Shown: in pieces, positions 42,039 to 58,733 of the stretch | How the letters are laid out: every line of letters begins with the position of its first letter | Numbering within the stretch: the stretch's first letter is position 1 | Notes under the pieces: generated by a model | Databases searched by the model: none | What the model saw: only the letters and a program-made list of their open reading frames with translations | Told to the model about the DNA's origin: nothing | Origin: a virus | Strand: one strand, 5' to 3' | DNA length: 58,733 nt | IMG/VR virus record: IMGVR_UViG_3300046792_000073 | Location: 1 to 58,733 of that record | Position numbers and translations under genes: made by a program

Positions 42039-42067
42039 TTGGCGCGGGCGCCTCATGGGTCTACTGT
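42039..42067 (+). promoter_or_regulatory. Rightward promoter TTGGCG-N17-TACTGT
   Basis: TTGGCG at 42039-42044 and TACTGT at 42062-42067 are spaced by 17 nt. The -35 belongs to the same T(T/A)GGC(A/G) type as the later right-arm promoters. It should drive the operon from 42174 onward. Confidence 0.55.
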
Positions 42068-43920: not shown

Positions 43921-44243
43921 CGGACCAGGTTATCAACACACCTGTAGTAGCTACTACGGGTGTATCTCTCTCCCCCCTAACGGGGGGAGAGATACCCGCG
44001 CCCGCCCACGCGGACAGGGGACGCGCGGGCGCGCGGAACGCCGGCGCACGCGGATACCACGGGAACAGCTACGGGTCAAGGCACGGTTACGGCGGGGCGA
44101 ACGGCCAGTCGCACAATCACGAGCGGATCCTGGGCGCCCTCGACCGGCACCGCGCCGAGCACGGGTGGGCGCCCGGCCTGGTATGGAATCCCTACGCCGG
44201 CCGGTACGGGCCGCCGCAAGCCGGCGCCTGGTGGTCCCGGTGA
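43917..44243 (+). CDS. Gly/Arg-rich hypothetical protein
   Basis: The 108-residue protein overlaps the ATPase stop by ATGA. Its 5' part contains a 14-bp palindrome and a strong hairpin. Residues 30-60 are Arg/Gly/Tyr-rich and probably disordered or RNA/DNA-binding; the end reads ERILGALDRHRAEHGWAPGLVW. No family recognised. Confidence 0.55.
   Translation: MTDQVINTPVVATTGVSLSPLTGGEIPAPAHADRGRAGARNAGARGYHGNSYGSRHGYGGANGQSHNHERILGALDRHRAEHGWAPGLVWNPYAGRYGPPQAGAWWSR
43944..43957. repeat. 14-bp perfect palindrome GTAGTAGCTACTAC
   Basis: This palindrome lies 24 nt after the end of the replication ATPase gene and just before a hairpin. Its AT-rich arms stand out from the GC-rich context. It could be a dimeric protein site or part of an origin. 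Confidence 0.55.
43962..43995. repeat. Long inverted repeat with C6/G6 core
   Basis: Left arm 43962-43977 and right arm 43982-43995 pair over 14 bp with one 2-nt bulge and a 4-nt loop. The core is a run of six C against six G. With the adjoining palindrome it forms a structured segment of about 55 bp inside a coding region. Confidence 0.6.
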
Positions 44244-47232: not shown

Positions 47233-47310
47233 CCGGGGCCGACAGATAGCGGAACAGTTCCGGCGTCCTGACCTGCGGGTTCACGGGCGCCGGGACTTTC
47301 TTATCCGCCG

Positions 47311-47343
47311 GGGTTGGCGAATGTCCGACCCGCCTGCTACGTT
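47311..47343 (+). promoter_or_regulatory. Promoter TTGGCG-N18-TACGTT with hairpin
   Basis: TTGGCG (47314-47319) and TACGTT (47338-47343) are spaced by 18 nt. The -35 lies in a 7-bp stem, 47311-47317 with 47325-47331 (one G-T pair), with a 7-nt loop. It drives the DUF932 gene. Confidence 0.65.
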
Positions 47344-47344
47344 T

Positions 47345-47380
47345 CTCTTATCGGGTGAAAGGCACCCGGTAAGAGAGAGG
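47345..47380 (+). promoter_or_regulatory. Inverted pair of TTAYCGGGT motifs over the leader
   Basis: TTATCGGGT (47348-47356) and ACCCGGTAA (47364-47372) face each other and extend into CTCTTA / TAAGAG arms, giving a 13-bp hairpin with one mismatch. The right arm runs into the GAGAGAGGGAC ribosome site, so the fold could block translation. As DNA it could be a dimeric operator. Confidence 0.5.
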
Positions 47381-47387
47381 GACCGCA

Positions 47388-48692
47388 ATGACCGCAACCG
47401 ACGTCAACATCGAGTTCGACACCCAGCGCGCCGGCCAACTGTCCGCCATCGTCGAGATGCGCGCCGACCTGACCCGCCGGCAGGCCGAGTTCGACACCGG
47501 AGCCGCGCAGGCCAAGCTCGACGCCGACCTCGCCCAGCGGGTCGCCGACGGCAAGATCGCCATGATGGGTGAGGGCCGCTACCGGGTGCTTGAGGGCTGG
47601 GACCGCGGCGAGATCTTTACCGTCCGCACGGCCACCCGTCCCGGCGAACTGACCCTGATCGAGCCGCAGGCCGGGCTCGACCTCGACGAGGCCGGCAAGG
47701 CCCTCGGCTACTTCGCCCAGCCGGAATGGCACGGCCTGGGCACGGTGATCCCCGGCGGGACCACCGACATCGGCAAGATCCTTGAGGTGTCCGGGCTCGA
47801 CTGGGACGTCGAAAAGGTCGCGGTCCGCTACTTCGGCGACTCGGCGACGGACCTGCGCGAACTGCCCGACGCCTACGTCACCCGCCGGTCAGACACCCAC
47901 AACGGGCTCGGCGTCGTCGGCTCACGGTATGAGCCGGTGCAGAACAGGGACGCGTTCGGGTTCCTCGCCGACCTGCTCGGCAAGCGGGAGATCCTCCCGG
48001 TGTCGGCGTTCCCGCTGCGCGGCGGCCGGACCGTCGTGATCGCCCTGCGGCTGCCCGAGGACGTCGTCATCGACGCGCAGGGCGTCGCCGACATCATCAC
48101 CCCGTATCTGATGGCCCGCAACAGTCATGACGGCCGGACCCCGGTCCAGTGTGTCGTGACCCCGTGGCGTGCCCGGTGCTCTAACACCGAGCGCCTGGCG
48201 ATGGCGAACGCGATCACCCGCTGGTCAACCCCGCACCTGCGCAACGCACTGCGCCGGATCGACGAGGCCCGGCAGACCCTCAAGCTCGCCGTCAACTACT
48301 ACACCGAGTTCGGCCACCAGGAGACCAAGCTCGCCCGCACCGACCTGACCGTCGCCCAGATCGACACGATCCTGGCCGACCTGGACCGGGAACTGTGGCC
48401 GGACAAGCAGGCCGACCAGACCGAGGGCAAGGGCGCCCCGTCCAAGCGGTCCGAGACCACCCGCCGGCAGCGCGACGAGGCGATCAGGGACATCCTCGGC
48501 GTCGAGCGCGAGCGGGTCGGGCAGACCGCCTACGCCGTCGAGCGGGCGTTCACCGACTACCTGGACCACGTCGCCCCCCGCCGGATTCAGGGGATGGCGA
48601 TGGGCGCGGCGATGGCGACGGCGATCGTCGAGGGCGCCGAGGACCAGCGCAAGGCCAAGCTGCACGAGCGGCTGATGCTGGTCACCCGGTAA
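47388..48692 (+). CDS. DUF932 / phage-plasmid-like (TIGR03299) protein
   Basis: The 434-residue protein matches DUF932: ALGYFAQPEWHGLGTVI at about 105, SGLDWDVEKVAVRYF, LGVVGSRYEPVQNRDAFGFLADLL, and TPWRARCSNT near 265. The first 75 residues are a coiled coil. The function of this phage and plasmid family is not established; a DNA-binding or anti-defence role has been suggested in general terms. Its own promoter and terminator flank it, and the stop codon overlaps an ACCCGGTAA word. Confidence 0.75.
   Translation: MTATDVNIEFDTQRAGQLSAIVEMRADLTRRQAEFDTGAAQAKLDADLAQRVADGKIAMMGEGRYRVLEGWDRGEIFTVRTATRPGELTLIEPQAGLDLDEAGKALGYFAQPEWHGLGTVIPGGTTDIGKILEVSGLDWDVEKVAVRYFGDSATDLRELPDAYVTRRSDTHNGLGVVGSRYEPVQNRDAFGFLADLLGKREILPVSAFPLRGGRTVVIALRLPEDVVIDAQGVADIITPYLMARNSHDGRTPVQCVVTPWRARCSNTERLAMANAITRWSTPHLRNALRRIDEARQTLKLAVNYYTEFGHQETKLARTDLTVAQIDTILADLDRELWPDKQADQTEGKGAPSKRSETTRRQRDEAIRDILGVERERVGQTAYAVERAFTDYLDHVAPRRIQGMAMGAAMATAIVEGAEDQRKAKLHERLMLVTR
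48684..48692 (+). promoter_or_regulatory. ACCCGGTAA motif copy
   Basis: Exact copy whose last three bases are the TAA stop of the DUF932 gene, 19 bp before a strong terminator. Confidence 0.4.
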
Positions 48693-48710
48693 GCTCGGGA
48701 CGCCACGAGA

Positions 48711-48753
48711 GGCGCCGGCCCGGGGGAGAGATCCCCCGGGCCGGCGTCTCTTT
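48711..48753 (+). terminator. Strong intrinsic terminator
   Basis: A 16-bp stem (48711-48726 with 48733-48748, one G-T pair) with a 6-nt loop is followed by TCTTT. This is the best classical terminator in the window and ends the DUF932 transcript. Confidence 0.8.
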
Positions 48754-48755
48754 GC

Positions 48756-48804
48756 TTACCGGGTAGACAGGGCGATCACCCGCCCGCTATTCTTAACGTG
48801 TAAG
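48756..48804 (+). promoter_or_regulatory. Promoter TAGACA-N18-TATTCT with operator-like repeats
   Basis: TAGACA (48764-48769) and TATTCT (48788-48793) are spaced by 18 nt. TTACCGGGT (48756-48764) overlaps the -35, and CTTAACGTGTAAG (48792-48804) overlaps the -10 and start point. It drives the gene at 48833. Confidence 0.7.
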
Positions 48805-48832
48805 TAGCTGAGAGAGACAGAGGGAGACCGCG

Positions 48833-49099
48833 ATGACCACGACCGCAGTCCAGGCCCGGCAAGAGGCGATGGGCATGCTCACCGAGTTGTACTGGCCCGC
48901 GACCGGCGACTACCAGTTCGCCGGCGGCCCGGTCTCGGCCGTCGCCGACAACATCGCCAAGCTCGCCGCCCTCGGCCGGACCGACCGCTGGCGCAAGGCG
49001 ATCACCCGGTGGGCCGACGAGGTCCGCCAGGCGACCCCCGAGACCCTGCACTGGGCCTACTTCCAGTTCGCCGTCTACGCCGGCCACGCCAGCGAATGA
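48833..49099 (+). CDS. Small hypothetical protein
   Basis: The 88-residue protein has a helix (QARQEAMGMLTELYW), a short loop, then a long helix (RTDRWRKAITRWADEVRQATPETLHWAYFQFAVY). GGGAG lies before the ATG. It stands alone between a promoter and a hairpin. Not recognised. Confidence 0.65.
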   Translation: MTTTAVQARQEAMGMLTELYWPATGDYQFAGGPVSAVADNIAKLAALGRTDRWRKAITRWADEVRQATPETLHWAYFQFAVYAGHASE

Positions 49100-49107
49100 G
49101 ACCATAG

Positions 49108-49140
49108 CGCCGGCCCGCCCGCTCACAAGGCGGGCCGGCG
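49108..49140 (+). terminator. 12-bp GC hairpin after small gene
   Basis: Arms 49108-49119 and 49129-49140 pair perfectly with a 9-nt loop. No T tract follows; it is probably an attenuator between 48833-49099 and the next gene. Confidence 0.6.
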
Positions 49141-49178
49141 TGAACCATCCACCCAACCACGAGAGAGGAACGACCGCA

Positions 49179-50135
49179 ATGCGACCTAAAGGACCGATGG
49201 ACCCGGGCTGGCGCCCCGCCGACCCGGTCGGGCAGATGCTGATGCTCGACATCCTTGAGCGCCTCGCCCAGCACCGCGCCGAGGACACCCTGCCGCGGTC
49301 ACCGCGTGGCCTGTTCTACGACCTGCGCCCCGACGGCATGGGCCACGGCCTGCACTACGTCAAGCAGCCGAGGATGATCACCGTCGGCCGGGGCACCCGC
49401 CGCGCCGACCCGGCCGAGATCGGCCCGATCCAGGTGCAGGAAATGCTCGTCAAGCTGCGCCGCGCCGGCCTGGTCCGCGAGGACTGGATCGAGGACACCC
49501 GCGCCCCGACCCCCGACATGCCGTCCTACAACGACGTGACCGCCGAGGACGAGGCCGCCTGGCTGGTCAACGAGATCATGTCGCCCCGGATCACCTACAG
49601 CCCGCAGCGCGGGCAGGACATGTTCCTTGAAATGGTCGTCGAGGCCGCCGGCCTGATCGGCCGCACCGCCCGCATCTGCCGCCCGTTCGGCGTGCCGGTG
49701 TACTCAGGTGGCGGGTTCGACGGGCTCAAGGGCAAGCGGGCGTTCGCCGAACGCGCCGCCGACCGGGACGTCCCGACGGTCGTGCTGCGGATCAGCGACC
49801 TCGACGAGCACGGCCTGCGGATCGCCGAGTCGATGGCCGAGGACTGTGTCGCCTGGGCGGTCAATGAGTACGGCGCCGACTACGACCAGTTGACCTTTGA
49901 ACGGATCGCCCTGACCGTCGCCCAAGCGGAGGCCGCCGGGGTGATCGACTCGGCGGGCAAGGCCGAGGCCGACGCCCTGCCGGTGCCGGTGATGGACGCG
50001 ATCATCACCGAGGCGATCGAGGAATACCAGGACGCGCAGACCCGCGAGGACAACGCCCGTGAGGCCGCCGAGGAATCCGCCCGCGTGACGGGCCTGGTCC
50101 TCGCCGGGCTGCGCGAGAGAGGAACCGAGTCATGA
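49179..50135 (+). CDS. Toprim protein (Topo VI-A / Spo11-like)
   Basis: The 318-residue protein has a Toprim-like centre: LEMVVEAAGLIGR, RPFGVPVYSGGGFDGLKGKRAFAERAADRDVPTVVLRISDLDEHGLRI. The D-L-D (Asp207, Asp209) and following HG match the Topo VI A / Spo11 DxDxxG motif. The N-terminal 140 residues look like a winged helix with YDLRPDGMGHG, which could hold the strand-cutting Tyr. The C-terminus is a long charged helix. A GAGAGAGGAAC leader precedes the ATG. DNA nicking or relaxing is inferred. Confidence 0.65.
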   Translation: MRPKGPMDPGWRPADPVGQMLMLDILERLAQHRAEDTLPRSPRGLFYDLRPDGMGHGLHYVKQPRMITVGRGTRRADPAEIGPIQVQEMLVKLRRAGLVREDWIEDTRAPTPDMPSYNDVTAEDEAAWLVNEIMSPRITYSPQRGQDMFLEMVVEAAGLIGRTARICRPFGVPVYSGGGFDGLKGKRAFAERAADRDVPTVVLRISDLDEHGLRIAESMAEDCVAWAVNEYGADYDQLTFERIALTVAQAEAAGVIDSAGKAEADALPVPVMDAIITEAIEEYQDAQTREDNAREAAEESARVTGLVLAGLRERGTES

Positions 50136-50584
50136 TCCACGACCACGATACGACCGCCGAGACTCTCGCCGCCGCCGGGCCGCCCGGCGAACGGCACGCG
50201 ACAATCAGGTTCAGCCACACCACGACCCGGCAGATCGTCGTCGATGCCGGCGAGATCCGGCGAATCTTCGGCCTGGGCGGTGTCCCCGCCGAGCAACTGA
50301 TCGACCGGCTCGTCGCCCTGCTCGCCGCCCGCCCGTCCGTGCTGGCGGCCGACGAGGTCGAGAACGGCGCGACGTGGGAATCCGACACCGGCCATGTCCT
50401 GGTCACGGTCAACGGCATGCCCCCCGGCGAGGCCGCCGAGTTCGTGATCCTCGCCGAATCCGAGACCGACGCCCCGAACCCCGGCTGTGTCCGCTGCTCG
50501 GCCGGCCACGGCCAGGGACCCGACGTCCGGCCGTGCGCCTGCCTGAATCAGTGCGCGTTCCTCGGCTGCGGGGCCATGCCATGA
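50132..50584 (+). CDS. Hypothetical protein with C-terminal Cys cluster
   Basis: This 150-residue protein has a beta-rich domain (RHATIRFSHTTTRQIVVDAGEIRRIFGLG), a helix pair, and a Cys cluster (CVRCSAGH, CACLNQCAFLGC) at the end. ATGA overlap with the Toprim gene suggests a joint role. Zinc or disulfide binding is likely. Confidence 0.6.
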   Translation: MIHDHDTTAETLAAAGPPGERHATIRFSHTTTRQIVVDAGEIRRIFGLGGVPAEQLIDRLVALLAARPSVLAADEVENGATWESDTGHVLVTVNGMPPGEAAEFVILAESETDAPNPGCVRCSAGHGQGPDVRPCACLNQCAFLGCGAMP

Positions 50585-51120
50585 CCGCCGACGGCCAGAC
50601 CAGGGCAGCGCTTATGCTCGCCGACCGCCGGCACCGGCCCGCGACCGGCCGGGAGGTCTGCCAGCACGACGGCGAGTCGTGGCCGTGCGACGCCCGCCTC
50701 GCCCTCGACGCCCTCAACGCGTCAGCCGAGGACGCGACCGCCTGGCGGGAACACGCCCAGACCGACTGCGCGGCGCTGCGCCGGGTGTGGGATCTGAGCC
50801 GCCGATGGGATCAGCGGGCGCGCGCCAATTCCGACCAGGTGAGTGCCGCGATGATGGCCGGCTATGCGCTGACCATCCGTAACGCCATCACCGACGACCC
50901 GCCCGCGTCCCGGCGCCGCGCCACCGACCCGGGATGGCTCGCGATGTTCCTCGGCGCCCGCGACTGCCGCTGGTGCCACCAGCGGATCCGGCCCCAAGGT
51001 CCCCGCCCGGACTGGGCCGCCGATGGCAAGAAATGGCCGGCGCTGATGTGCCCGGCCCGGCCAGTCGCCGACGGCGACCTCGCCCTGCACGAACCGGAGG
51101 AATCCCCCGATGAGACCTGA
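50581..51120 (+). CDS. Hypothetical protein with zinc motif
   Basis: The 179-residue protein has an N-terminal CQHDGESWPC, helices with DCAALRRVWDLSRRWDQRAR, and a C-terminal CRWCHQRIRPQGPRPDW...MCP ribbon. ATGA overlap with the previous gene; the last 11 nt overlap the next ATG. Not recognised. Confidence 0.6.
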   Translation: MTADGQTRAALMLADRRHRPATGREVCQHDGESWPCDARLALDALNASAEDATAWREHAQTDCAALRRVWDLSRRWDQRARANSDQVSAAMMAGYALTIRNAITDDPPASRRRATDPGWLAMFLGARDCRWCHQRIRPQGPRPDWAADGKKWPALMCPARPVADGDLALHEPEESPDET

Positions 51121-51418
51121 CCGGACCGAACTGACCGCCGCGCTCGATGGCGCCGGGATCATCGAGGCCGCCCAGCTTGGCGACGCGATCCTCGCCGCCT
51201 GGCCCGCCTCGTCCACGGCGCCGGCGAACCTCGACGACGCGATCAGCCGCGCCGAGGACCTCGCCGCCGAACTGGGCCGGCTGCTCGGCTATATCAGCAC
51301 CGCCGAGCCGGTGCCGACCCGGAAGGCCGAGATCCGCCAGCACCGGGCCGGCTCGTGCTGGTGCGGTAGCTCGCACTCGGTGCCCGGTGCCCGCTCGCTC
51401 AACCAGCCGCACCCGTGA
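51110..51418 (+). CDS. Hypothetical protein
   Basis: This 102-residue protein is helical in the first two thirds (LDDAISRAEDLAAELGRLLGYI) and ends in CWCGSSHSVPGA. The ATG lies inside the previous gene. Unknown function. Confidence 0.55.
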   Translation: MRPDRTELTAALDGAGIIEAAQLGDAILAAWPASSTAPANLDDAISRAEDLAAELGRLLGYISTAEPVPTRKAEIRQHRAGSCWCGSSHSVPGARSLNQPHP

Positions 51419-51457
51419 AACAATAGGCTGACCAGCCACAGGAGAGAGGAACAGCCG

Positions 51458-51799
51458 ATGACAACGACCGACGAGCAGTTCACCGACACCGGCCCCGGGC
51501 AGCCGCACGAGCGGCTGTGGCCCGAGCAGGTCGTCGAGCTACTCGGGCTCGCCTCAACCGATTCGCTGCGCGCCACCGCCGGCCGGTCCCGGCAACTGGC
51601 CCGCCGGGGCAAGCTCACCGTCCACGACCTGCCCGTCGAGGACGGCCGCGACAAGCGGAAGATCCCCACTGGGGAGGACGGCAAAGGCCCGGTCCGCACC
51701 GTGTGGCAATCCTGGTGGTACAGGGCGACGATCGAGGCGCATCTGCCGCACCGGCGCGGCCGGGGCAACCCGGGGAAGGCCAAGGCCGATGCTGCCTGA
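51458..51799 (+). CDS. Possible DNA-binding protein
   Basis: The 113-residue protein has EQVVELLGLASTDSLRATAGRSRQLARRGKLTVHDLP, resembling a MerR- or excisionase-like helix-turn-helix with wing, then a basic C-terminus. GAGAGAGGAAC lies before the ATG. It could be a regulator of right-arm promoters; this is inferred. Confidence 0.55.
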   Translation: MTTTDEQFTDTGPGQPHERLWPEQVVELLGLASTDSLRATAGRSRQLARRGKLTVHDLPVEDGRDKRKIPTGEDGKGPVRTVWQSWWYRATIEAHLPHRRGRGNPGKAKADAA

Positions 51800-52043
51800 C
51801 CGGCACGGCGGCCGGCTGCTCGGCAAGGCCGCGACCCGGACCGGGCCGATGCCGGCCCGGCTCGCCGCCCTGCTGACTGGCGAGGATTACGAGACCGCCC
51901 TGCTCGACGGCGAGCCGCCGTTCGTGCCGGGGATCGTTCTGTCCGTTCCCGACGGCGACGGCACCGTCCCCCGGTGCCCGGTCCACCAGGAACCGGCCGG
52001 CGGCGGCCGGGTGTGCATCGCCTGCGACGGGGGCGTGTTCTAA
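51789..52043 (+). CDS. Hypothetical protein with late Cys motif
   Basis: The 84-residue protein overlaps the previous gene by 11 nt. LAALLTGEDYETALLDGEPPF and CPVHQ...CIACDGGVF suggest a small zinc-binding tail. Not recognised. Confidence 0.55.
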   Translation: MLPDRHGGRLLGKAATRTGPMPARLAALLTGEDYETALLDGEPPFVPGIVLSVPDGDGTVPRCPVHQEPAGGGRVCIACDGGVF

Positions 52044-52044
52044 G

Positions 52045-52551
52045 GTGGCCCGCCACCGCCGCAAGCCGGCCAGCTACCGCGAGGTCATCGCCCCGGGCGC
52101 CCTGCGCATCCCCGACGAGGTCGAGGTCACCCTCGACGGGGGACCGCGTATCGGCACCGCCCGCCTGGCCGCCGACGATCGCGGCGTGACCGCGTCGATC
52201 AGTCTCGACGGCGACGCTGGCCTGGCCGCCGCTGACGCGATCCTCACCGGGAACGTCGCCGGCCTGTCGTTCCGGGTTGAGCCGTCCCTGCCCGTCGAGG
52301 CGGTTGTGACGGCGCCCCAGCCGGGCGCCCTGGATCCGGTGCCCTGGCATATCGTGTCCGGGCACCGGCACCGGCACGCCGAGCGCACCGCCGACGGCAG
52401 CGGCCTGACCGGGTGGCGGGAGCATGACCACCTGGGCGGCGGTCAGCCGCACCGGCACGACCCGCAGACGGGGGCGCAGATCCCCGTCGGCTGCGACCCG
52501 GACCGGTGCCGGCACCCGTTCGGCTCGCACGCCGAGACCTGCCGGTCATAA
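52045..52551 (+). CDS. His-rich hypothetical protein
   Basis: The 168-residue protein starts with GTG one base after the previous stop. Residues 1-95 are a beta-rich domain that resembles a shortened prohead-protease-like fold (REVIAPGALRIPDE near the start and GNVAGLSFRVEP) but lacks the His/Ser pair. The last 70 residues contain at least ten His (HIVSGHRHRHAE, HDHLGGGQPHRHDP) and end in CDPDRCRHPFGSHAETC. It may bind several metals. Confidence 0.55.
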   Translation: MARHRRKPASYREVIAPGALRIPDEVEVTLDGGPRIGTARLAADDRGVTASISLDGDAGLAAADAILTGNVAGLSFRVEPSLPVEAVVTAPQPGALDPVPWHIVSGHRHRHAERTADGSGLTGWREHDHLGGGQPHRHDPQTGAQIPVGCDPDRCRHPFGSHAETCRS

Positions 52552-52552
52552 T
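52547..52552 (+). promoter_or_regulatory. Candidate -10 box (CATAAT)
   Basis: CATAAT lies 6 nt before the ATG at 52559 and overlaps the previous stop codon, as in the other leaderless candidates. No ribosome site is seen. Confidence 0.35.
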
Positions 52553-52558
52553 GGCGCC

Positions 52559-52825
52559 ATGAGCACTTCCCCCGAACCGATGCCCGGCCCCGCCGGCCCG
52601 AGGTACGTCCCGGGCCTGCCGACCGCCTCGACCGACATCACCGTCCCCAAGGGGACCCGGCTGACCCTCGCCCACCTGCGCGCCCTGCTCGCCCAGGCCG
52701 ACTCGATCCACCTGTCCCCCGGCGCCGTGGTGACCCCTGCGACGTCGATCGGCGGGAAGCTGACCGGGCTCAAGGTCGAGGGCGACATCCGGCCGGCTGC
52801 CAACGACCCGTTGACAGGCCAGTGA
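52559..52825 (+). CDS. Small hypothetical protein
   Basis: The 88-residue protein has a Pro-rich start, then TRLTLAHLRALLAQADSIHLSPGAVV. It overlaps the ParB-like gene by 4 nt. Possibly leaderless. Not recognised. Confidence 0.55.
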   Translation: MSTSPEPMPGPAGPRYVPGLPTASTDITVPKGTRLTLAHLRALLAQADSIHLSPGAVVTPATSIGGKLTGLKVEGDIRPAANDPLTGQ

Positions 52826-53358
52826 CCGCCGCCCCGGCCGAGGGGTTCCGCCTCGCACCACAAGAGTTCGACCCCGCGATCGACGTCACGGCGATCCGCG
52901 AGCACCCAAAGAACGTCAACGAGGGCGACCTCGGCGCGATTGACTCGTCGATGCGCAAACACGGTATGGCCGGCGGTGTCCTGGTCCAGCGGTCCACCGG
53001 GTACATCATCAGCGGCAACCACACCTACCGGACCGCCGTCGGGCAAGGCGCCCCCGCCGTCCCCGGGTTCTGGCTGGACGTCGATGACGACGCCGCCGAG
53101 CAGATGATGCTCGACTGGAATCACTCCGCACGGCTGGGCCGCGACGACCCGTTCAAGCTCGCCGCCCTGCTCGTCGAACTAGCCGGCCGGGACGCCCTGC
53201 CGGCGACCTACGGCCGCGACGACCTCGACGAGATCCTCGCCGACATCGACCAGGGCGAGGGCATGTTCCCCGACGCCGGCGACGACCTGCCCACCGAACA
53301 CGAGTGCCCGTCCTGCGGCTACAAATGGTCGGGGAAGACAACCCCGCGCGCCGGATGA
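52822..53358 (+). CDS. ParB-like nuclease-domain protein
   Basis: The 178-residue protein has the ParB N-terminal core: AIREHPKNVNEGDLGAIDSSMRKHGMAGGVLVQRSTGYIISGNHTYRTA, with GNHTYR as the nucleotide-binding box. A C-terminal CPSCGYKW suggests a zinc knuckle. Such phage proteins are often paired with DNA methyltransferases and may be nucleases or methylation partners. GTG start; overlaps the methyltransferase by 4 nt. Confidence 0.75.
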   Translation: MTAAPAEGFRLAPQEFDPAIDVTAIREHPKNVNEGDLGAIDSSMRKHGMAGGVLVQRSTGYIISGNHTYRTAVGQGAPAVPGFWLDVDDDAAEQMMLDWNHSARLGRDDPFKLAALLVELAGRDALPATYGRDDLDEILADIDQGEGMFPDAGDDLPTEHECPSCGYKWSGKTTPRAG

Positions 53359-54392
53359 CCCGCCCGGCCTACGTCCTGCCAACGCTGGCCGAGATCGCCG
53401 CGGTTCAGCCGAACGGGCACGTCGCCGCCTCCCTGTTCGCCGGCATGGGCGGGTCCTCGACCGGGTACAGGATCGCCGGCTACCGGATCGGGTACGCGTG
53501 CGAGTTCACCACCGCCGCCGCCGACACCTACGCCGCGAACATGGCCCCCGGGACCGTCCTGGACCGGCGCGACGTCCGCCAGGTCACCGGCGCCGACATC
53601 CTCGCCGCCACCGGCCCCGACCTGGCCCTGCTCGACGGGTCGCCGCCCTGTGACCCGTTCTCGACGTCGGGGAAAGGTGACGCGGCGTGGGGGAAGACCC
53701 GCGACTACCTCGGCGAGCACAAACAGCGCACCGACGACCTCTACCCCGAGTTCGCCCGCCTCGTCGCCGAGACCCGGCCGCGCGTGTTCGTCGCCGAGAA
53801 CGTCACCGGCCTGATCAAAGGCCGCGCCCGGGGCTACTTCCTGGCGCTGCTGCCCAAGCTGCGCGACCCGGGGTACAGGGTCGCGGCCAAGGTCCTCGAC
53901 GCGTCCTGGCTGGGCGTGCCGCAGATGCGCCAAAGGGTGATCATCGTCGGCGTCCGCAACGACCTGCGCCATGATCCGGTGTTCCCCGCGCCGCTGGGTT
54001 ACCGGCGGGTGCTGCGGGAAGCCCTCGACGCCGCCGTACCGGACCCGGACGATCCCGAGCCGGCGCCGCTGTCGCCGCAACTGGCCGCCGAGTGGCACCG
54101 GATGCGACGCGCCGGCATCTACAACTCGTCGAAGTTCCTCAACCTCAAGCGGGGGAATCTCAACGCGCCGGGCTATACGATCACCGGCCTGGCCGGCACT
54201 CGCGCGGGACCGTGCCACCCGTCCGAGCCGCGCCGGTTCACGATCGCCGAACTGCGCCAGATCGGGTCGGTGCCGGTGGATTACGTCCTGACGGGGGACT
54301 ATGCCCAGCAGTGCCAGCGGATCGGTCAGTCGGTGCCGCCGTTGATGGCGGCCGCGATCGGCCGCGCCCTGCTCCCCGTCCTATCCCGTTAA
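53355..54392 (+). CDS. C5-cytosine DNA methyltransferase
   Basis: The 345-residue protein has the C5-MTase motifs in order: motif I SLFAGMGGSSTGY (27-39), motif IV GSPPCDPFS with catalytic Cys99, motif VI AENVTG (Glu148), motif VIII QMRQRVIIVG (190-199), and motif X with GQSVPP. Motif IV has GSPPCD where GPPCQ is usual. It should methylate cytosine in phage DNA, probably to avoid host restriction. ATGA overlap with the ParB-like gene. Confidence 0.9.
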   Translation: MTRPAYVLPTLAEIAAVQPNGHVAASLFAGMGGSSTGYRIAGYRIGYACEFTTAAADTYAANMAPGTVLDRRDVRQVTGADILAATGPDLALLDGSPPCDPFSTSGKGDAAWGKTRDYLGEHKQRTDDLYPEFARLVAETRPRVFVAENVTGLIKGRARGYFLALLPKLRDPGYRVAAKVLDASWLGVPQMRQRVIIVGVRNDLRHDPVFPAPLGYRRVLREALDAAVPDPDDPEPAPLSPQLAAEWHRMRRAGIYNSSKFLNLKRGNLNAPGYTITGLAGTRAGPCHPSEPRRFTIAELRQIGSVPVDYVLTGDYAQQCQRIGQSVPPLMAAAIGRALLPVLSR

Positions 54393-54407
54393 GAAAAGTT
54401 CGGCCAA

Positions 54408-54441
54408 GGGGTAGGCAGATCCCCCACCTACCCGGTAATGT
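54408..54441 (+). promoter_or_regulatory. Promoter TAGGCA-N18-TAATGT with hairpin
   Basis: TAGGCA (54412-54417) and TAATGT (54436-54441) are spaced by 18 nt. Stem 54409-54415 with 54427-54433 holds the first part of the -35. ACCCGGTAA (54430-54438) overlaps the stem and the -10. The upstream bases GTTAAGAAAAG resemble those before the last element at 58697. Confidence 0.65.
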
Positions 54442-54518
54442 TTCATCTGTAGGGCAGATCGAACCGCAGAGAACATCAGCCGACAGGCCGGAACCCACCG
54501 GCCGGGAAGGGGGTCACA

Positions 54519-54698
54519 ATGACCACCATCACGATCTGCCCCGAGGCCGAGGTCCGCGCGTTCGCGGCCGAGTTCGGGCACCTGCCCAACGTGGCCCGGA
54601 TGGTCGCCATGTGCGAGGCCGGGACGATCACCTGGGCCCAGGCCCACAAGATCGCCCGCCAGGCGCTGGCGGCCGGGATCTCGGCGGTGACGTCGTGA
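54519..54698 (+). CDS. Small helical protein
   Basis: This 59-residue protein reads ITICPEAEVRAFAAEFG, ARMVAMCEAGTITWAQAHKIARQALAAG; a two-helix unit. GGAAGGGGG lies before the ATG. It overlaps the next gene by GTGA. Not recognised. Confidence 0.6.
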   Translation: MTTITICPEAEVRAFAAEFGHLPNVARMVAMCEAGTITWAQAHKIARQALAAGISAVTS

Positions 54699-54832
54699 AC
54701 CCGCTGCCGGCCTGCTCGGTCGCCACCCGGCGCCCGGTGTGGGTGTGCCCCAGGTGCGGGCGCGTGCTGGCCAAGGAACTGGACGGGTCCTCGTGGCTCG
54801 ATCCGGGCCTGGCCTGCCCGCCCCGGCGCTAG
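54695..54832 (+). CDS. Tiny zinc-ribbon protein
   Basis: The 45-residue protein has CSVATRRPVWVCPRCGRVL and a last CPP, a single zinc ribbon. GTG start in GTGA overlap. The stop lies 3 bp before a strong hairpin. Could modulate transcription or translation; inferred only. Confidence 0.6.
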   Translation: MNPLPACSVATRRPVWVCPRCGRVLAKELDGSSWLDPGLACPPRR

Positions 54833-54835
54833 ACC

Positions 54836-54874
54836 GCCGGCCGGGGGGTCGGCCCGCTCGATCCCCCGGCCGGC
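54836..54874 (+). terminator. 12-bp hairpin between small genes
   Basis: Arms 54836-54847 and 54863-54874 pair perfectly with a 15-nt loop. The GAGAGAGGAAC leader of the next gene follows after 3 nt. No T tract, so it may be an attenuator. Confidence 0.55.
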
Positions 54875-54895
54875 CCGAGAGAGAGGAACACGCAA

Positions 54896-55036
54896 ATGCA
54901 GGTCAACGGATGGACCTACGACCCGGCCCGGCGGCTGTGGTTCGCCGACGCCAGCGACGGTATCCGCTGGCTTGCCCTCGACGGCGGCCCGGACGACGCC
55001 CCGGCGTTCCGGCCCGACGCATTCCTGCCCGCGTAA
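54896..55036 (+). CDS. Small WYL-like repeat protein
   Basis: This 46-residue protein (MQVNGWTYDPARRLWFADASDGIRW...) looks like a single beta-hairpin unit rich in Trp and Asp. GAGAGAGGAAC lies before the ATG. Not recognised. Confidence 0.6.
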   Translation: MQVNGWTYDPARRLWFADASDGIRWLALDGGPDDAPAFRPDAFLPA

Positions 55037-55039
55037 GAC

Positions 55040-55101
55040 CCGAGAGAGGAACCGCCCGGCACTTCCCCGCCGGGCGAACCCCGAGAGAGAGGAACCCTGC
55101 C
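55040..55101 (+). promoter_or_regulatory. Tandem GAGAGAGGAAC leaders with a hairpin between
   Basis: Two leader copies lie at 55042-55052 and 55084-55094; only the second has a start codon behind it. Between them an 8-bp hairpin (55053-55060 with 55069-55076) starts directly after the first copy. The first may be a relic of a lost small gene. Confidence 0.5.
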
Positions 55102-55488
55102 ATGCCCGCCAGCAGCGTCACCGCCGCGATCACCGGAACCGACCACGCCACACCGGCGCTGGCCCGGGTCGCGGCGGTGACGCTGCTGGCGGGCTACCCA
55201 GCGACCGCGGTCACCGTCCAGCTTGTCGGCCTGGCCGTCGAGGGCGGCCTGCGCCCGCAGGCCGATCCGAGACGCCGGCGCGGCCTGTACCGGGTGTTCG
55301 TCAACGGCCCCGGCCGTGACGCCCTGTTCGGCTGCATCGACATCAGCGAGACCACCGGCCGGGCCGTCCGCGCCTACCTGACCCACGGCAACGACGGGGT
55401 CGAGCGCAGGTACGAGTCGGTCGCCGGCATCCGCGCCGTCCTCGCATCGTGGGCGGCGATCCAGCGTGAAAGGAACACCCACCCATGA
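55102..55488 (+). CDS. Hypothetical protein
   Basis: The 128-residue protein has HATPALARVAAVTLLAGYPATAVTVQLVGLAVEGGL, then a beta-rich end with GRDALFGCIDISETTGRAVRAYL. ATGA overlap with the next gene. Not recognised. Confidence 0.6.
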   Translation: MPASSVTAAITGTDHATPALARVAAVTLLAGYPATAVTVQLVGLAVEGGLRPQADPRRRRGLYRVFVNGPGRDALFGCIDISETTGRAVRAYLTHGNDGVERRYESVAGIRAVLASWAAIQRERNTHP

Positions 55489-56006
55489 CAAGCTCGCGCG
55501 ACATTCAGATCGCGTTCGACAAGCTCGCCTACGACCTCAACCTGGCCGGGGTCGGGCAGGAACTGCTCGACCGGCTCGCCACCCTGGCGACCGTGGTCCG
55601 GGGATACGCCGCCGGGCCGGCCGGCGACATCTACGCCGCCGACCCGGCGACCACCGCCGCCCACGCCGACCTCGCCGACCTCGACGACGGCGGCCCGGCC
55701 CTCGACACCGATCAGAAACTGGCCCGCGCCGCCGTCCTGGCGACGATCGGGAACAGCAACCAGCTAGCCCGGCTGCTCGCCGAGGAAACCGGTCCCGCAC
55801 CCGAGCCGGCTATCGCGCCCGAGCCGGCTGTCGCGCCGTCTGCGCTCGGCCCGTCCCAGGACGGCCTGACCCTGTATCAGGTGAGCGTCGGCACATACCC
55901 AGTCGGCCGGATCTTCTCGGCCGAGGTCATGGGGGTCAACCCGCTCGACGCCCTGGCGGTCGCCCCGCGCGAACTGCGCGCCCGCTACCCGGAGATCACC
56001 GAGTAA
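55485..56006 (+). CDS. Hypothetical protein
   Basis: The 173-residue protein is helical and acidic to about residue 100, followed by a Pro/Ala repeat (PEPAIAPEPAVAPS) and a C-terminal domain YQVSVGTYPVGRIFSAEVMG. ATGA overlap with the previous gene. The stop leads directly into a hairpin-promoter element. Confidence 0.6.
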   Translation: MTSSRDIQIAFDKLAYDLNLAGVGQELLDRLATLATVVRGYAAGPAGDIYAADPATTAAHADLADLDDGGPALDTDQKLARAAVLATIGNSNQLARLLAEETGPAPEPAIAPEPAVAPSALGPSQDGLTLYQVSVGTYPVGRIFSAEVMGVNPLDALAVAPRELRARYPEITE

Positions 56007-56021
56007 GAAATACTGGCCCGC

Positions 56022-56073
56022 GTGGGCGGATCGCCTTGGCAGGCGGCCCGCCCACCACCTATTCTTAACATGT
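56022..56073 (+). promoter_or_regulatory. Hairpin-promoter element TTGGCA-N18-TATTCT
   Basis: TTGGCA (56036-56041) and TATTCT (56060-56065) are spaced by 18 nt. The -35 lies in the tip of a hairpin: 56022-56029 with 56048-56055 and 56032-56036 with 56041-56045, with loop TGGC. The -10 runs into TTAACATGTAAG. The hairpin plus TATTCTT could also end the upstream transcript. Confidence 0.7.
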
Positions 56074-56098
56074 AAGGACTTGAGGGAGAGGAACCCAG

Positions 56099-56305
56099 AT
56101 GACCCAGACCGCCGCCCAGCAGCAGCCGGCCGAGACCATCGACGACGTCGTCGCCCAGATCGAGGCCGGCCGGCGCGGGTACACCGGCATCGTCACCGGC
56201 GAGCCGTTCGCCGACGACCAGGGCACCCGCTGGCACCAAGTATTCGAATACACCAACGGCCGCTGCACCGACGCCTACGTCAGCCGCCACGGCCAGCAGA
56301 TCTGA
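56099..56305 (+). CDS. Small hypothetical protein
   Basis: The 68-residue protein has a Gln-rich start, IDDVVAQIEAGRRGYTGIV and WHQVFEYTNGRCTDAYVSRHG. Its end (CAGATC, then TGAGAGAGGA) is copied by the gene at 57874, where the stop codon forms part of the next leader. Not recognised. Confidence 0.6.
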   Translation: MTQTAAQQQPAETIDDVVAQIEAGRRGYTGIVTGEPFADDQGTRWHQVFEYTNGRCTDAYVSRHGQQI

Positions 56306-56321
56306 GAGAGGACCGACCGCC

Positions 56322-56738
56322 ATGATCGCCATCGGAGAGACCACCGTCGAGGTCGTCAACGGCCTGCCCGTCCTGGTCACCCGCGAGCAGGACATCGTCG
56401 AGATCACCCCCACCAGCCGGACCGTGACGCCGATGTTCCGGCGCGAGGTCATCGGCGCCACCCCGGAACTGGCCGGCGTCGAGATCGCCGCCGCCGAGTT
56501 CGGCCCGGACTGCTGGCACGTCACCCCGGTCTGGGCGCACGTTGACCGCCCGGACACGGGCGGGATCTCGGTCCGTGGGCGCAAGCTCGCTGACCGGCTG
56601 CGCGCAGCGATCCGCGACGGCAAGGCGATCACCGGCGACGCCGTCCTCGTCGATGTCAACGGCCGGACCTACGTCGATGCCCGGCATCACGTCCTGTCCC
56701 GCATGCTTAACGCGGACCTGCGCCGGCTCGGTTACTGA
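56322..56738 (+). CDS. Hypothetical protein
   Basis: The 138-residue protein is beta-rich (VNGLPVLVTREQDIVEITP, FGPDCWHVTPVWAHVD) with helix RGRKLADRLRAAIRDG and a final DARHHVLSRMLNADLRRL. The TGAGAGAGGAC leader at its start includes the previous stop. Not recognised. Confidence 0.6.
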   Translation: MIAIGETTVEVVNGLPVLVTREQDIVEITPTSRTVTPMFRREVIGATPELAGVEIAAAEFGPDCWHVTPVWAHVDRPDTGGISVRGRKLADRLRAAIRDGKAITGDAVLVDVNGRTYVDARHHVLSRMLNADLRRLGY

Positions 56739-56753
56739 CCAGACCCGGCGGAT

Positions 56754-56805
56754 CGGCCCGGATGCCTTGGCAGGCGTCCGGGCCGCCCTGTATTCTTAAC
56801 ACGTA
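56754..56805 (+). promoter_or_regulatory. Hairpin-promoter element TTGGCA-N18-TATTCT
   Basis: TTGGCA (56767-56772) and TATTCT (56791-56796) are spaced by 18 nt. The -35 spans the loop TGGC (56768-56771) of a 14-bp stem, 56754-56767 with 56772-56785, with one G-T pair. The -10 continues into TTAACACGTAAG. It is the clearest member of the family. Confidence 0.75.
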
Positions 56806-56826
56806 AGCGAGAGAGAGGAACCCGAA

Positions 56827-57093
56827 ATGACGACCGCGACGCTCACCCGGGCCGAGGGACTCAACGTCCTCGACGACCTGCGCGAGACCCTGATCCATTC
56901 GGCCACCTGCGAGCAGCCCGGCGCCCAGTGCCCCGCCTGCGACGCCGACCACCTGATCGCCCGGGTCACCCGCGACCTGTACGACAGCTACCCGCTCGCC
57001 GACGCCGTCCAGACCGCCGCCCTGATCGCCCTCGACCTGCCGTATGCGCTCGGCCGGGACGTCAAGGCGATCGTCGCCCGCATTGCCGAATGA
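56827..57093 (+). CDS. Hypothetical protein with CxxC
   Basis: The 88-residue protein has NVLDDLRETLIHSATCEQPGAQCPACDADH, then two helices (TRDLYDSYPLADAVQTAALIALDLPYALG). GAGAGAGGAAC lies before the ATG. Probably zinc-binding. Unknown function. Confidence 0.6.
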   Translation: MTTATLTRAEGLNVLDDLRETLIHSATCEQPGAQCPACDADHLIARVTRDLYDSYPLADAVQTAALIALDLPYALGRDVKAIVARIAE

Positions 57094-57150
57094 CCACCAG
57101 CCGGCGCCGGCCATCGACCGGCACCGGCCAGCTTGAGAGAGGAACGACCG

Positions 57151-57603
57151 ATGACCGCCGACCAGATGATGATCCTCGCCAACCACGAGACCTACTGCCC
57201 CGAGCACGGCGGCTACCGCGACGAGTGCGGCTGCCCGGCCTACCCGCGCGCCGCCGCCGTCGAGGCCAAATGGGGGAAGGCGCACCCGCTGTTCGCCCAG
57301 ATGCGCCAGATCGACCGGCAGAACGTCCTCGACCACGCCGCCCTGACCGGGCAGGGCAACCCGCTCGCCGGCCTGGTCGCCGCGTTCGACGCCGAGCGCG
57401 CCGCCGTCGAGGCCACCCAGACGGCGCCCAGCGTCCCCGTCCCGATCGATCGGGCGATCCACCAGGGGAACACCTGCCCGGTCTGCGGCAAGCAGCACAG
57501 CCGCCCGTCGGCGATCTCGGCGAGACACGTCGCCCAGGCGCTGGCATCCGGGGTCACCGGCTACGACTACGACGCCGAGCGCTGGGTGGGGACGACGTCA
57601 TGA
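57151..57603 (+). CDS. Hypothetical protein with two Cys motifs
   Basis: The 150-residue protein has YCPEHGGYRDECGCPAYPRAA at the start and CPVCGKQHSRPSA near residue 105, two possible zinc sites joined by a helix. The ATG at 57151 follows a GAGAGAGGAAC leader. ATGA overlap with the next gene. Confidence 0.6.
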   Translation: MTADQMMILANHETYCPEHGGYRDECGCPAYPRAAAVEAKWGKAHPLFAQMRQIDRQNVLDHAALTGQGNPLAGLVAAFDAERAAVEATQTAPSVPVPIDRAIHQGNTCPVCGKQHSRPSAISARHVAQALASGVTGYDYDAERWVGTTS

Positions 57604-57737
57604 TCACCGTGTGGGCCAGGTTCCTCGACGGCAGGACCGACTGCTGGGGGACCGAGGGCGGCGAGACCGACGCCCTGATCGCCGAGCTATGGGACGACCC
57701 TGAGGTCGTCGAGGTGTGGACCGAGGGCGACTACTAG
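57600..57737 (+). CDS. Small acidic protein
   Basis: This 45-residue protein (MITVWARFLDGRTDCWGTEGG...) is acidic with several Trp residues. ATGA overlap. It ends 16 bp before a strong terminator. Not recognised. Confidence 0.6.
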   Translation: MITVWARFLDGRTDCWGTEGGETDALIAELWDDPEVVEVWTEGDY

Positions 57738-57753
57738 GGCCAGCAGCCCGGCC

Positions 57754-57788
57754 GGGCCGGCTGTCAACGGATCGTTGGCAGCCGGCCC
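57754..57788 (+). terminator. 15-bp intrinsic terminator
   Basis: Stem 57754-57768 with 57774-57788 (one G-T pair) and a 5-nt loop is followed by GATTAATTA, a weak T-rich stretch. It ends the small-gene transcript just before the next promoter. Confidence 0.7.
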
Positions 57789-57794
57789 GATTAA

Positions 57795-57847
57795 TTACCG
57801 GGAAGGGGTAGGCAAGGACGGACCCCGCCCTGTATTCTTAACACGTA
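57795..57847 (+). promoter_or_regulatory. Promoter TAGGCA-N18-TATTCT with operator-like repeats
   Basis: TAGGCA (57809-57814) and TATTCT (57833-57838) are spaced by 18 nt. TTACCGGGA (57795-57803) lies just upstream, and TTAACACGTAAG follows the -10. A 5-bp stem (57805-57809 with 57822-57826) encloses the -35. Confidence 0.7.
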
Positions 57848-57873
57848 AGCAGTTGAGAGAGAAGGAACCGGAA

Positions 57874-58119
57874 ATGCTCGACACGCTGATGGCCCGGGGC
57901 TACTTCCCCGCCGACGACGCCCCCGCCGGCGCCAACTGGTTTGAACTGACCGCCGGCCCGCGCGGCGTGGTCCGCGTCGTCGTCGAGGACGGCACCGCCG
58001 AGATCTACGTCAACGATGCCCGCAGCGTGAACTACTCGCAGGCCCGCCTGACCGGCGCCTCGCCGGCCATGTTCGACGCCGTCCTGGCCGCCGCCGAGTC
58101 CGACGCCAGCCAGATCTGA
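57874..58119 (+). CDS. Small hypothetical protein
   Basis: The 81-residue protein has LDTLMARGYFPADDAPAGANWFEL, a beta strand run VRVVVEDGTAEIYVN, and helix ARLTGASPAMFDAVLAAAE. The ATG at 57874 follows GAGAGAGAAGGAAC. It ends in the same CAGATC-TGAGAGAGGA junction as the gene at 56099. Not recognised. Confidence 0.6.
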   Translation: MLDTLMARGYFPADDAPAGANWFELTAGPRGVVRVVVEDGTAEIYVNDARSVNYSQARLTGASPAMFDAVLAAAESDASQI

Positions 58120-58136
58120 GAGAGGAACCGACCGCC

Positions 58137-58691
58137 ATGTGCATCCGCTGCGGCACCGGCTCAATCGCCTGGTGCACCCACCCCACCCACCACGGCGAGG
58201 ACAACCCGGCCCGGACGGTCCACGGGATCGCCACGACCCACACGTTCGACCCGGCCCCCGACTGCCTCGGGCCGAACTGCTGGCACGACAACATGACCAG
58301 CTACACGACCGACGCGTCCCCCGAGCAGATCGACCTGTCGGTCCGGTGGCGGGTCACCCTCGACGCGCACTCGGCCGCCCTGCGCGCCCTGCTCGACCCG
58401 GACCTGCCCCCCGGGACGATGGCGATGATCCCGCTCGTCCAGCCGGGCAAGCAGCACGGCTGGTGGGAGACCGGGCAGCCCGTCGAGACCGTCCCCGGCG
58501 TGATCATCCTGGCGACCGAGGGCGGCCACGACGACTCGGCCAAGACGGTCCCCGGGAAGGTCCTGGACTACTCCGCAGCCCGCACCCTGGCCGACAAGAT
58601 CGCCGAGACCTACCTCGCCGGCCGTGACGGCACGTTCGGTCACGCGGTCGTCGAGGCAAACGGCTCGACGTTCGTCCACGAAGGGATCTGA
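58137..58691 (+). CDS. Hypothetical protein with Cys/His N-terminus
   Basis: The 184-residue protein starts MCIRCGTGSIAWCTHPTHH, a probable zinc site, then CLGPNCWHD, then a mixed alpha/beta domain (VRWRVTLDAHSAALRALLDPDLPPG, VPGVIILATEGG). The TGAGAGAGGAAC leader includes the previous stop. The gene ends 42 bp before the window edge. Confidence 0.6.
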   Translation: MCIRCGTGSIAWCTHPTHHGEDNPARTVHGIATTHTFDPAPDCLGPNCWHDNMTSYTTDASPEQIDLSVRWRVTLDAHSAALRALLDPDLPPGTMAMIPLVQPGKQHGWWETGQPVETVPGVIILATEGGHDDSAKTVPGKVLDYSAARTLADKIAETYLAGRDGTFGHAVVEANGSTFVHEGI

Positions 58692-58733
58692 TCCCGGTAA
58701 GAAAAGTGGCCGGTTCCCGTAGGCACGGGAACC
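58692..58733 (+). promoter_or_regulatory. Truncated hairpin-promoter element at window end
   Basis: TCCCGGTAAGAAAAG (58692-58706) resembles the bases before the element at 54412. TAGGCA (58720-58725) spans the loop of a perfect 9-bp hairpin, 58712-58720 with 58725-58733, which ends exactly at the window edge. The -10 would lie outside. Confidence 0.5.

What the first reader, a model, noticed from the sequence alone, without database searches (positions are those of the whole stretch)
47311..58733. Family of combined hairpin-promoter elements on the right arm
Seen directly: six elements share T(T/A)G(G/A)C(A/G)-N18-TAnnnT (47314, 48764, 54412, 56036, 56767, 57809), and a seventh -35 lies at 58720 at the window edge. 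At 56036, 56767 and 58720 the -35 is in the loop of a GC hairpin; at 47314 and 54412 it lies in a 7-bp stem. The -10 follows the right arm and is T-rich (TATTCTT in four cases), so the same bases could be a terminator U-tract for the upstream gene. A DNA hairpin might also affect promoter melting. The exact N18 spacing and constant loop TGGC suggest selection, not chance. Function as terminator plus promoter is inferred.
Basis: partly seen in the sequence, partly recalled or inferred. Interest (0 to 1): 0.75.

Follow-up and report, generated by a model that had tools for sequence, protein, structure and literature searches.

The report
Phage intergenic terminator-promoter cassettes
Between its right-arm genes, this high-GC phage of an actinobacterium-like host repeats a compact switch, a stop-transcription hairpin beside an ordinary bacterial-type promoter; in three of seven copies the two are fused so that a promoter box forms the loop of the hairpin, a small new twist on an arrangement already known from mycobacteriophages.

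Summary
The promoter observation is real. Six T(T/A)G(G/A)C(A/G)-N18-TAnnnT sites exist exactly as described, all on the + strand and all intergenic (0.17 expected by chance), plus a truncated seventh. They fit the actinobacterial housekeeping consensus. The hairpin claim holds for three of the seven only (56036, 56767, 58720). There the stem closes exactly on T1-A6 of the -35 box, its sequence differs between copies while pairing is kept, and at most 2 of 20,000 shuffles reach it. The stems at 47314 and 54412 are at or near chance. Three gaps (47314, 48764, 57809) instead carry a separate strong hairpin 11-19 nt upstream of the -35. So six of seven gaps hold one terminator-like hairpin, separate (gap 136-155 nt) or fused (88-92 nt). 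A start-associated sequence (GAGAGAGGAAC) precedes many start codons, and a CTTA-N5-TAAG dyad lies over the predicted start site of four promoters. The same plan (terminator, SigA-like promoter, start-associated sequence) is found in cluster K mycobacteriophages Adephagia and Leston, so this is a variant of a known kind. The -35 box as terminator loop was not seen in the comparison phages. Termination and transcription starts are inferred. A DNA-hairpin effect on promoter melting has no support.

The parts
47245..47298 (+). Separate terminator-like hairpin with a CUUUCUU tail, upstream of the 47314 promoter (approximate limits)
   Evidence: RNA fold of 47236-47302 -36.1 kcal/mol, z -4.27
47314..47343 (+). 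Promoter TTGGCG-N18-TACGTT for the DUF932 gene (47388-48692)
   Evidence: enclosing hairpin not above chance
48707..48752 (+). Separate strong hairpin (21-position stem, GAGA loop) ending 11 nt before the -35
   Evidence: -52.1 kcal/mol, z -8.12
48764..48793 (+). Promoter TAGACA-N18-TATTCT
54412..54441 (+). Promoter TAGGCA-N18-TAATGT; no strong hairpin in this gap
   Evidence: fold z -0.44
56022..56055 (+). Fused hairpin; the -35 TTGGCA forms the closing pair and loop
   Evidence: -26.8 kcal/mol, z -4.21; 0/20000 shuffles
56036..56065 (+). Promoter TTGGCA-N18-TATTCT
56754..56785 (+). Fused hairpin; the -35 TTGGCA forms the closing pair and loop
   Evidence: -35.1 kcal/mol, z -5.19; 2/20000 shuffles
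56767..56796 (+). Promoter TTGGCA-N18-TATTCT
57753..57789 (+). Separate strong hairpin, 17-position stem, ending 19 nt before the -35
   Evidence: -36.7 kcal/mol, z -5.36
57809..57838 (+). Promoter TAGGCA-N18-TATTCT
58712..58733 (+). Fused hairpin around the -35 TAGGCA (58720-58725), cut by the end of the record
   Evidence: -15.0 kcal/mol, z -2.92; 0/20000 shuffles
48792..48804 (+). Dyad CTTAACGTGTAAG over the end of the -10 and predicted +1; same at 56064-56076, 56795-56807, 57837-57849
   Evidence: CTTA-N5-TAAG: 4 in window, 0 expected; nowhere else
56811..56821 (+). Example of the start-associated sequence GAGAGAGGAAC (11 copies in the window), mostly starting 16-19 nt before a start codon
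   Evidence: 11 found, 0.01 expected; positions
54390..54396 (+). TAAGAAA upstream of a -35; also 56004-56010 and 58698-58704 (+), and 47297-47303 (-)
   Evidence: 4 found, all beside these promoters, 0.08 expected
42039..42067 (+). Further promoter candidate TTGGCG-N17-TACTGT in the divergent intergenic region

Best explanation
These are intergenic punctuation cassettes of a 71% GC siphophage of an actinobacterium-like host. In each right-arm gap the upstream transcription unit ends at a GC hairpin, and the next unit starts at a housekeeping-sigma promoter (TwGrCr-N18-TAnnnT), with initiation predicted at or near the G of CTTAACrYGTAAG and translation at a start-associated sequence plus start codon. 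In longer gaps hairpin and promoter lie side by side; in three compact gaps they are fused, so that the -35 hexamer is the loop and part of the spacer is the right arm of the hairpin. The fused hairpin most likely acts as RNA from the upstream gene (termination or 3'-end formation) and the DNA acts separately as a promoter. The dyad over +1 is a plausible operator. Shown: sequences, statistics, pairing kept with changed letters among the three fused copies, gap lengths, same plan in cluster K phages. Inferred: promoter activity, termination, regulation.
For: Six promoters against 0.17 expected, + strand only, all intergenic. The -10 fits TANNNT, the S. coelicolor consensus (PMC4895711). Fused stems: 0-2 of 20,000 shuffles in exact register; 96% of cells paired, 5 of 9 pairs with changes on both sides, slid controls 33-46% paired. 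Separate hairpins with fold z -4.3 to -8.1 lie upstream of the other three. Stop-to-35 distance is 28-29 nt in fused and 71-81 nt in separate gaps. Cluster K phages Adephagia and Leston have 5 and 6 promoters with a strong hairpin 1-13 nt upstream; reversed controls have none. Published work describes SigA-like promoters, a putative terminator and a start-associated sequence in these cluster K gaps (PMC11373665).
Against: No RNA data. The T-rich -10 starts 4-5 nt after the main fused stems, so they are not classic intrinsic terminators (at 56767 a weak extension brings the tail closer). Some gaps have strong hairpins without a recognisable promoter downstream (49107-49141, 54836-54874), so hairpins may not all terminate. 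54412 has no strong hairpin. No close relative carrying the right arm was found, so conservation between phages is untested; the more distant L140 has promoters without hairpins.
Confidence: 0.72

Rival explanations
1. The promoters are ordinary; the three hairpins are RNA processing or 3'-end protection elements (RNase III site or exonuclease block) of the upstream transcript, not terminators.
For: Poor U-tract after the fused stems; strong hairpins also in gaps without a promoter (49107-49141, 54836-54874).
Against: The separate hairpins at 47245-47298 and 48707-48752 have T-rich tails, and cluster K equivalents have T runs right after the stem.
Confidence: 0.17
2. The inverted repeat around the -35 is an operator, bound as DNA by a repressor or activator.
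For: Dyads over promoters are typical operators; cluster K left repeats are a conserved palindrome over the -35 (GTGTTGACATGTCAACAC).
Against: The stem sequences differ between the three copies while pairing is kept and four promoters lack the repeat. The CTTA-N5-TAAG dyad is a better operator candidate.
Confidence: 0.06
3. A DNA hairpin extruded in the promoter controls its melting or is recognised directly, as in phage N4 early promoters.
For: The single DNA strand can fold (-15.5, -18.5 and -10.2 kcal/mol).
Against: Normal -35/-10 hexamers and N18 are kept with or without the hairpin; no ORF over 1012 aa, and that one is the tape measure protein, so no N4-type virion RNA polymerase in the record.
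Confidence: 0.02
4. Chance: stems arise from the 71% GC composition.
For: True for 47314, 48764 and 57809, nearly so for 54412.
Against: 56036, 56767 and 58720 exceed shuffles in exact register.
Confidence: 0.02

Closest known systems
Cluster K mycobacteriophage ESAS/SAS intergenic cassettes (Adephagia, Leston, Gengar)
   Same: Right-arm gaps of about 100 nt with a strong hairpin, a SigA-like promoter (16-18 nt spacing), dyads over the promoter and a start-associated sequence before the start codon (PMC3203893, PMC11373665)
   Different: SAS letters differ (GAGAGAGGAAC against GGGATAGGAGCCC); no conserved 17-bp inverted repeats; -35 is TwGrCr rather than TTGACA; in three copies the hairpin encloses the -35 instead of ending before it
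phiC31 early-region terminators and phage promoter repeats
   Same: Terminator hairpins in early gaps that overlap other signals: at L146 9150-9242 the right arm of a hairpin runs into the repeated CCCGGGTTGCCGACTYCCTTAC motif, and CTACTCACGTGAGTAG repeats lie in terminator-like stems. That these are promoters and repressor sites, and that some terminators lack poly-U, is from my own knowledge of the phiC31 papers, which are not held
   Different: No match to the TwGrCr/TTGAC-N16-19-TAnnnT pattern in that region; different motif
Streptomyces/actinobacterial housekeeping-sigma promoters
   Same: TANNNT -10 and a loosely conserved -35 (PMC4895711)
   Different: Uniform N18 and a shared extended -10/+1 sequence TATTCTTAACrYGTAAG within one phage
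Phage N4 hairpin promoters
   Same: Hairpin-forming DNA at a promoter
   Different: No virion RNA polymerase, ordinary -35/-10 hexamers retained

Membership tests
Actinobacterial SigA/HrdB-type promoters | TANNNT -10 with a TTGAC-like -35 at 16-19 nt | tested here: met
   Six sites at N18, 0.17 expected; consensus from PMC4895711
Actinobacterial SigA/HrdB-type promoters | Transcription starts 6-8 nt after the -10 | not testable with these tools
   No RNA data
Cluster K SAS | GGGATAGGAGCCC with at most 2 mismatches near starts of many genes | tested here: not met
   Two matches, one near a start (56084); the repeated motif here is GAGAGAGGAAC
Cluster K ESAS | Conserved 17-bp imperfect inverted repeats flanking the promoter core | tested here: not met
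   No 17-bp pair found in the repeat scan; only the CTTA-N5-TAAG dyad and variable stems
Cluster K-like cassette (works like) | Strong hairpin immediately upstream of a SigA-like promoter in right-arm gaps | tested here: met
   48764 and 57809 by the same script as the cluster K phages; 47314 by folding; three more fused
Intrinsic terminators | GC stem directly followed by a U-tract | tested here: inconclusive
   Good tail at 47245-47298 and 48707-48752; tail displaced 4-5 nt at 56022-56055 and 56754-56785
N4-type hairpin promoters | Giant virion RNA polymerase gene | tested here: not met
   Largest ORF 1012 aa, a tape measure protein; the record is incomplete

The most novel reading that the evidence does not exclude
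A true dual-use element: the same 35-40 nt act as RNA terminator for the upstream gene and as promoter for the downstream gene, with the sigma -35 box held as the tetraloop of the terminator, so that one sequence is under joint selection as RNA and as DNA, and initiation and termination at it interfere with each other.
Probability: 0.3. Interest if true: 0.55.

Novelty: new variant of a known kind. Interest (0 to 1): 0.36.

Why it matters
It links the poorly understood start-associated sequences of cluster K mycobacteriophages to a wider actinophage plan, in which each right-arm gap carries terminator, promoter and start-associated sequence, and it gives a minimal natural example of how far terminator and promoter can be overlapped. 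Useful for annotating transcription units in uncultured actinophages; not a new mechanism by itself.

Tried and rejected
Exact TATTCTTAACAYGTAAG in viral contigs: no match. Relatives through the DUF932 protein: about 30% identity, unrelated phages and bacteria. Terminase: four 100%-identical fragments of the same phage that lack the right arm, except the end piece L010. The 49197 protein gave L139 and L140 (71 and 64% identity); L139's record has no such elements, L140 has two TTGACA-N17 promoters followed by TGTAAGC and no hairpin. Proteins at 58137 and 56322: no relatives. No Rfam match. phiC31: no match to this promoter pattern in its right part. A DNA-hairpin promoter was rejected for lack of any support. 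The similarity of the 56754-56785 hairpin to Kratiovirus terminators (82-86% over about 35 nt, E 0.2 to 10) is kept only as a lead, because palindromes inflate such matches.

Full report
What the window is. It is a virus record of 58,733 bases, 71% GC, with terminase, portal, major head protein and tape measure protein on the left, RecE/RecT on the minus strand in the middle, and replication, DUF932 and methyltransferase genes on the right. Terminase relatives are mostly in phages of actinobacteria. No close relative with the right arm was found in the collections searched.

Observation. The pattern T(T/A)G(G/A)C(A/G)-N18-TAnnnT occurs six times, all on the + strand, all in gaps between genes, with 0.17 expected. 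Spacing 18 has six matches, 17 has one, and 16 and 19 have none. A score built from these sites plus the two L140 promoters ranks five of them at the top, with a gap to the next; 47314 is seventh, behind 42039. Four share TATTCTTAACrYGTAAG, which contains a CTTA-N5-TAAG dyad seen nowhere else in the window. The -10 agrees with the TANNNT consensus of Streptomyces coelicolor (PMC4895711).

Hairpins. I scored the best stem around each -35 against shuffles of flank and spacer and then with the register locked on T1-A6 of the hexamer. The result is bimodal: 56036, 56767 and 58720 have stems of 15, 14 and 9 positions (0, 2 and 0 of 20,000 shuffles); the other four have none in this register. Their stems in other registers are at chance, or marginal at 54412 (0.02). 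Among the three, 5 of 9 pairs have changes on both sides and 96% of cells pair, against 33-46% when the partner is slid. This is a comparison of paralogous copies within one genome and only three sequences, so it is suggestive, not strong.

The gaps as units. Folding and hairpin scans show separate strong hairpins upstream of 47314 (about 47245-47298, z -4.3), 48764 (48707-48752, z -8.1) and 57809 (57753-57789, z -5.4). The three fused gaps have none other. Thus six of seven gaps have one hairpin associated with the promoter; 54412 is the exception. (The 47314 gap has a second hairpin downstream of the -10, noted separately.) The distance from stop codon to -35 is 28-29 nt in fused gaps and 71-81 nt in separate ones. 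Fusion is therefore most simply a compaction of the same plan.

Comparison. A short blastn search with the 56767 gap brought up Kratiovirus (cluster K5) mycobacteriophages. Their right-arm gaps consist of a strong hairpin, GTGTTGACATGTCAACAC with a TAnnnT -10, and GGGATAGGAGCCC before the start codon. The same script finds strong hairpins 1-13 nt upstream of 6 of 7 promoter-like sites in Leston and 5 of 9 in Adephagia, none in the reversed controls, and none in the parts searched of TurkishDelight, Shagrat, Lilbeanie, Mufasa8 or phiC31. Published work on Adephagia reports seven intergenic SigA-like promoters within ESAS elements and a putative terminator before one of them (PMC11373665); SAS and ESAS were defined in PMC3203893. 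The window has its own start-associated sequence, GAGAGAGGAAC, 11 copies against 0.01 expected, most of them starting 16-19 nt before a start codon. It is not the cluster K sequence, so I do not file the phage under cluster K, but the elements work on the same plan.

Mechanism. Most likely each cassette ends one transcript and starts the next. Promoter identity is well supported by sequence. Termination is inferred; at fused sites the T-rich -10 begins 4-5 nt after the main stem, so termination may be weak, or the hairpin may serve 3'-end formation instead. The idea that a DNA hairpin alters promoter melting has no support: the promoters without the hairpin have the same hexamers and spacing.

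Limits. Host and expression data are unknown; the seventh element is cut by the record end; the comparison set is small (seven named actinophage records, partly covered, and two metagenomic relatives).

Noticed in passing
window 1; L010 1483: The left end of the window is shared exactly by two other contigs (L008, L009), while L010 runs 1482 bases further left into what looks like an HNH-type gene, as expected for a packaged end (cos-like) crossed by circular or concatemeric DNA. L010 1-1482 is probably the missing right end.
   Followed up: partly
47342-47378: A 16-position hairpin whose right arm ends in GGTAAGAGAGA next to the ribosome-binding region of the DUF932 gene. Its left arm starts upstream of the predicted transcription start, so only readthrough RNA would form the whole hairpin and could hide the start site.
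   Followed up: partly
window, 11 places (e.g. 50115, 56811, 58118): Start-associated sequence GAGAGAGGAAC, analogous to the SAS of cluster K but with different letters.
   Followed up: yes
55042-55095: Two start-associated sequences flank a GC hairpin with no obvious gene between them.
   Followed up: no
43957-44000: 19-position hairpin with CTCTCTCC/GGAGAGAG arms in the gap after the replication gene.
   Followed up: no
L140 959 and 4404: Relative with two TTGACAGAGAACC-type promoters and the same TGTAAGC 6-7 nt after the -10, suggesting a shared initially transcribed sequence.
   Followed up: partly
L148 3175-3309 and 4186-4319: Streptomyces phage TurkishDelight repeats AGTGATCA...CGGGCGCYTATCCTCC after strong hairpins in two gaps: another terminator-promoter-like pair with a different motif.
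   Followed up: no
49197-50132: Protein matching PHROG 6247 (DNA topoisomerase, E 3e-14), 71 and 64% identical in L139 and L140 but absent from named phages.
   Followed up: no
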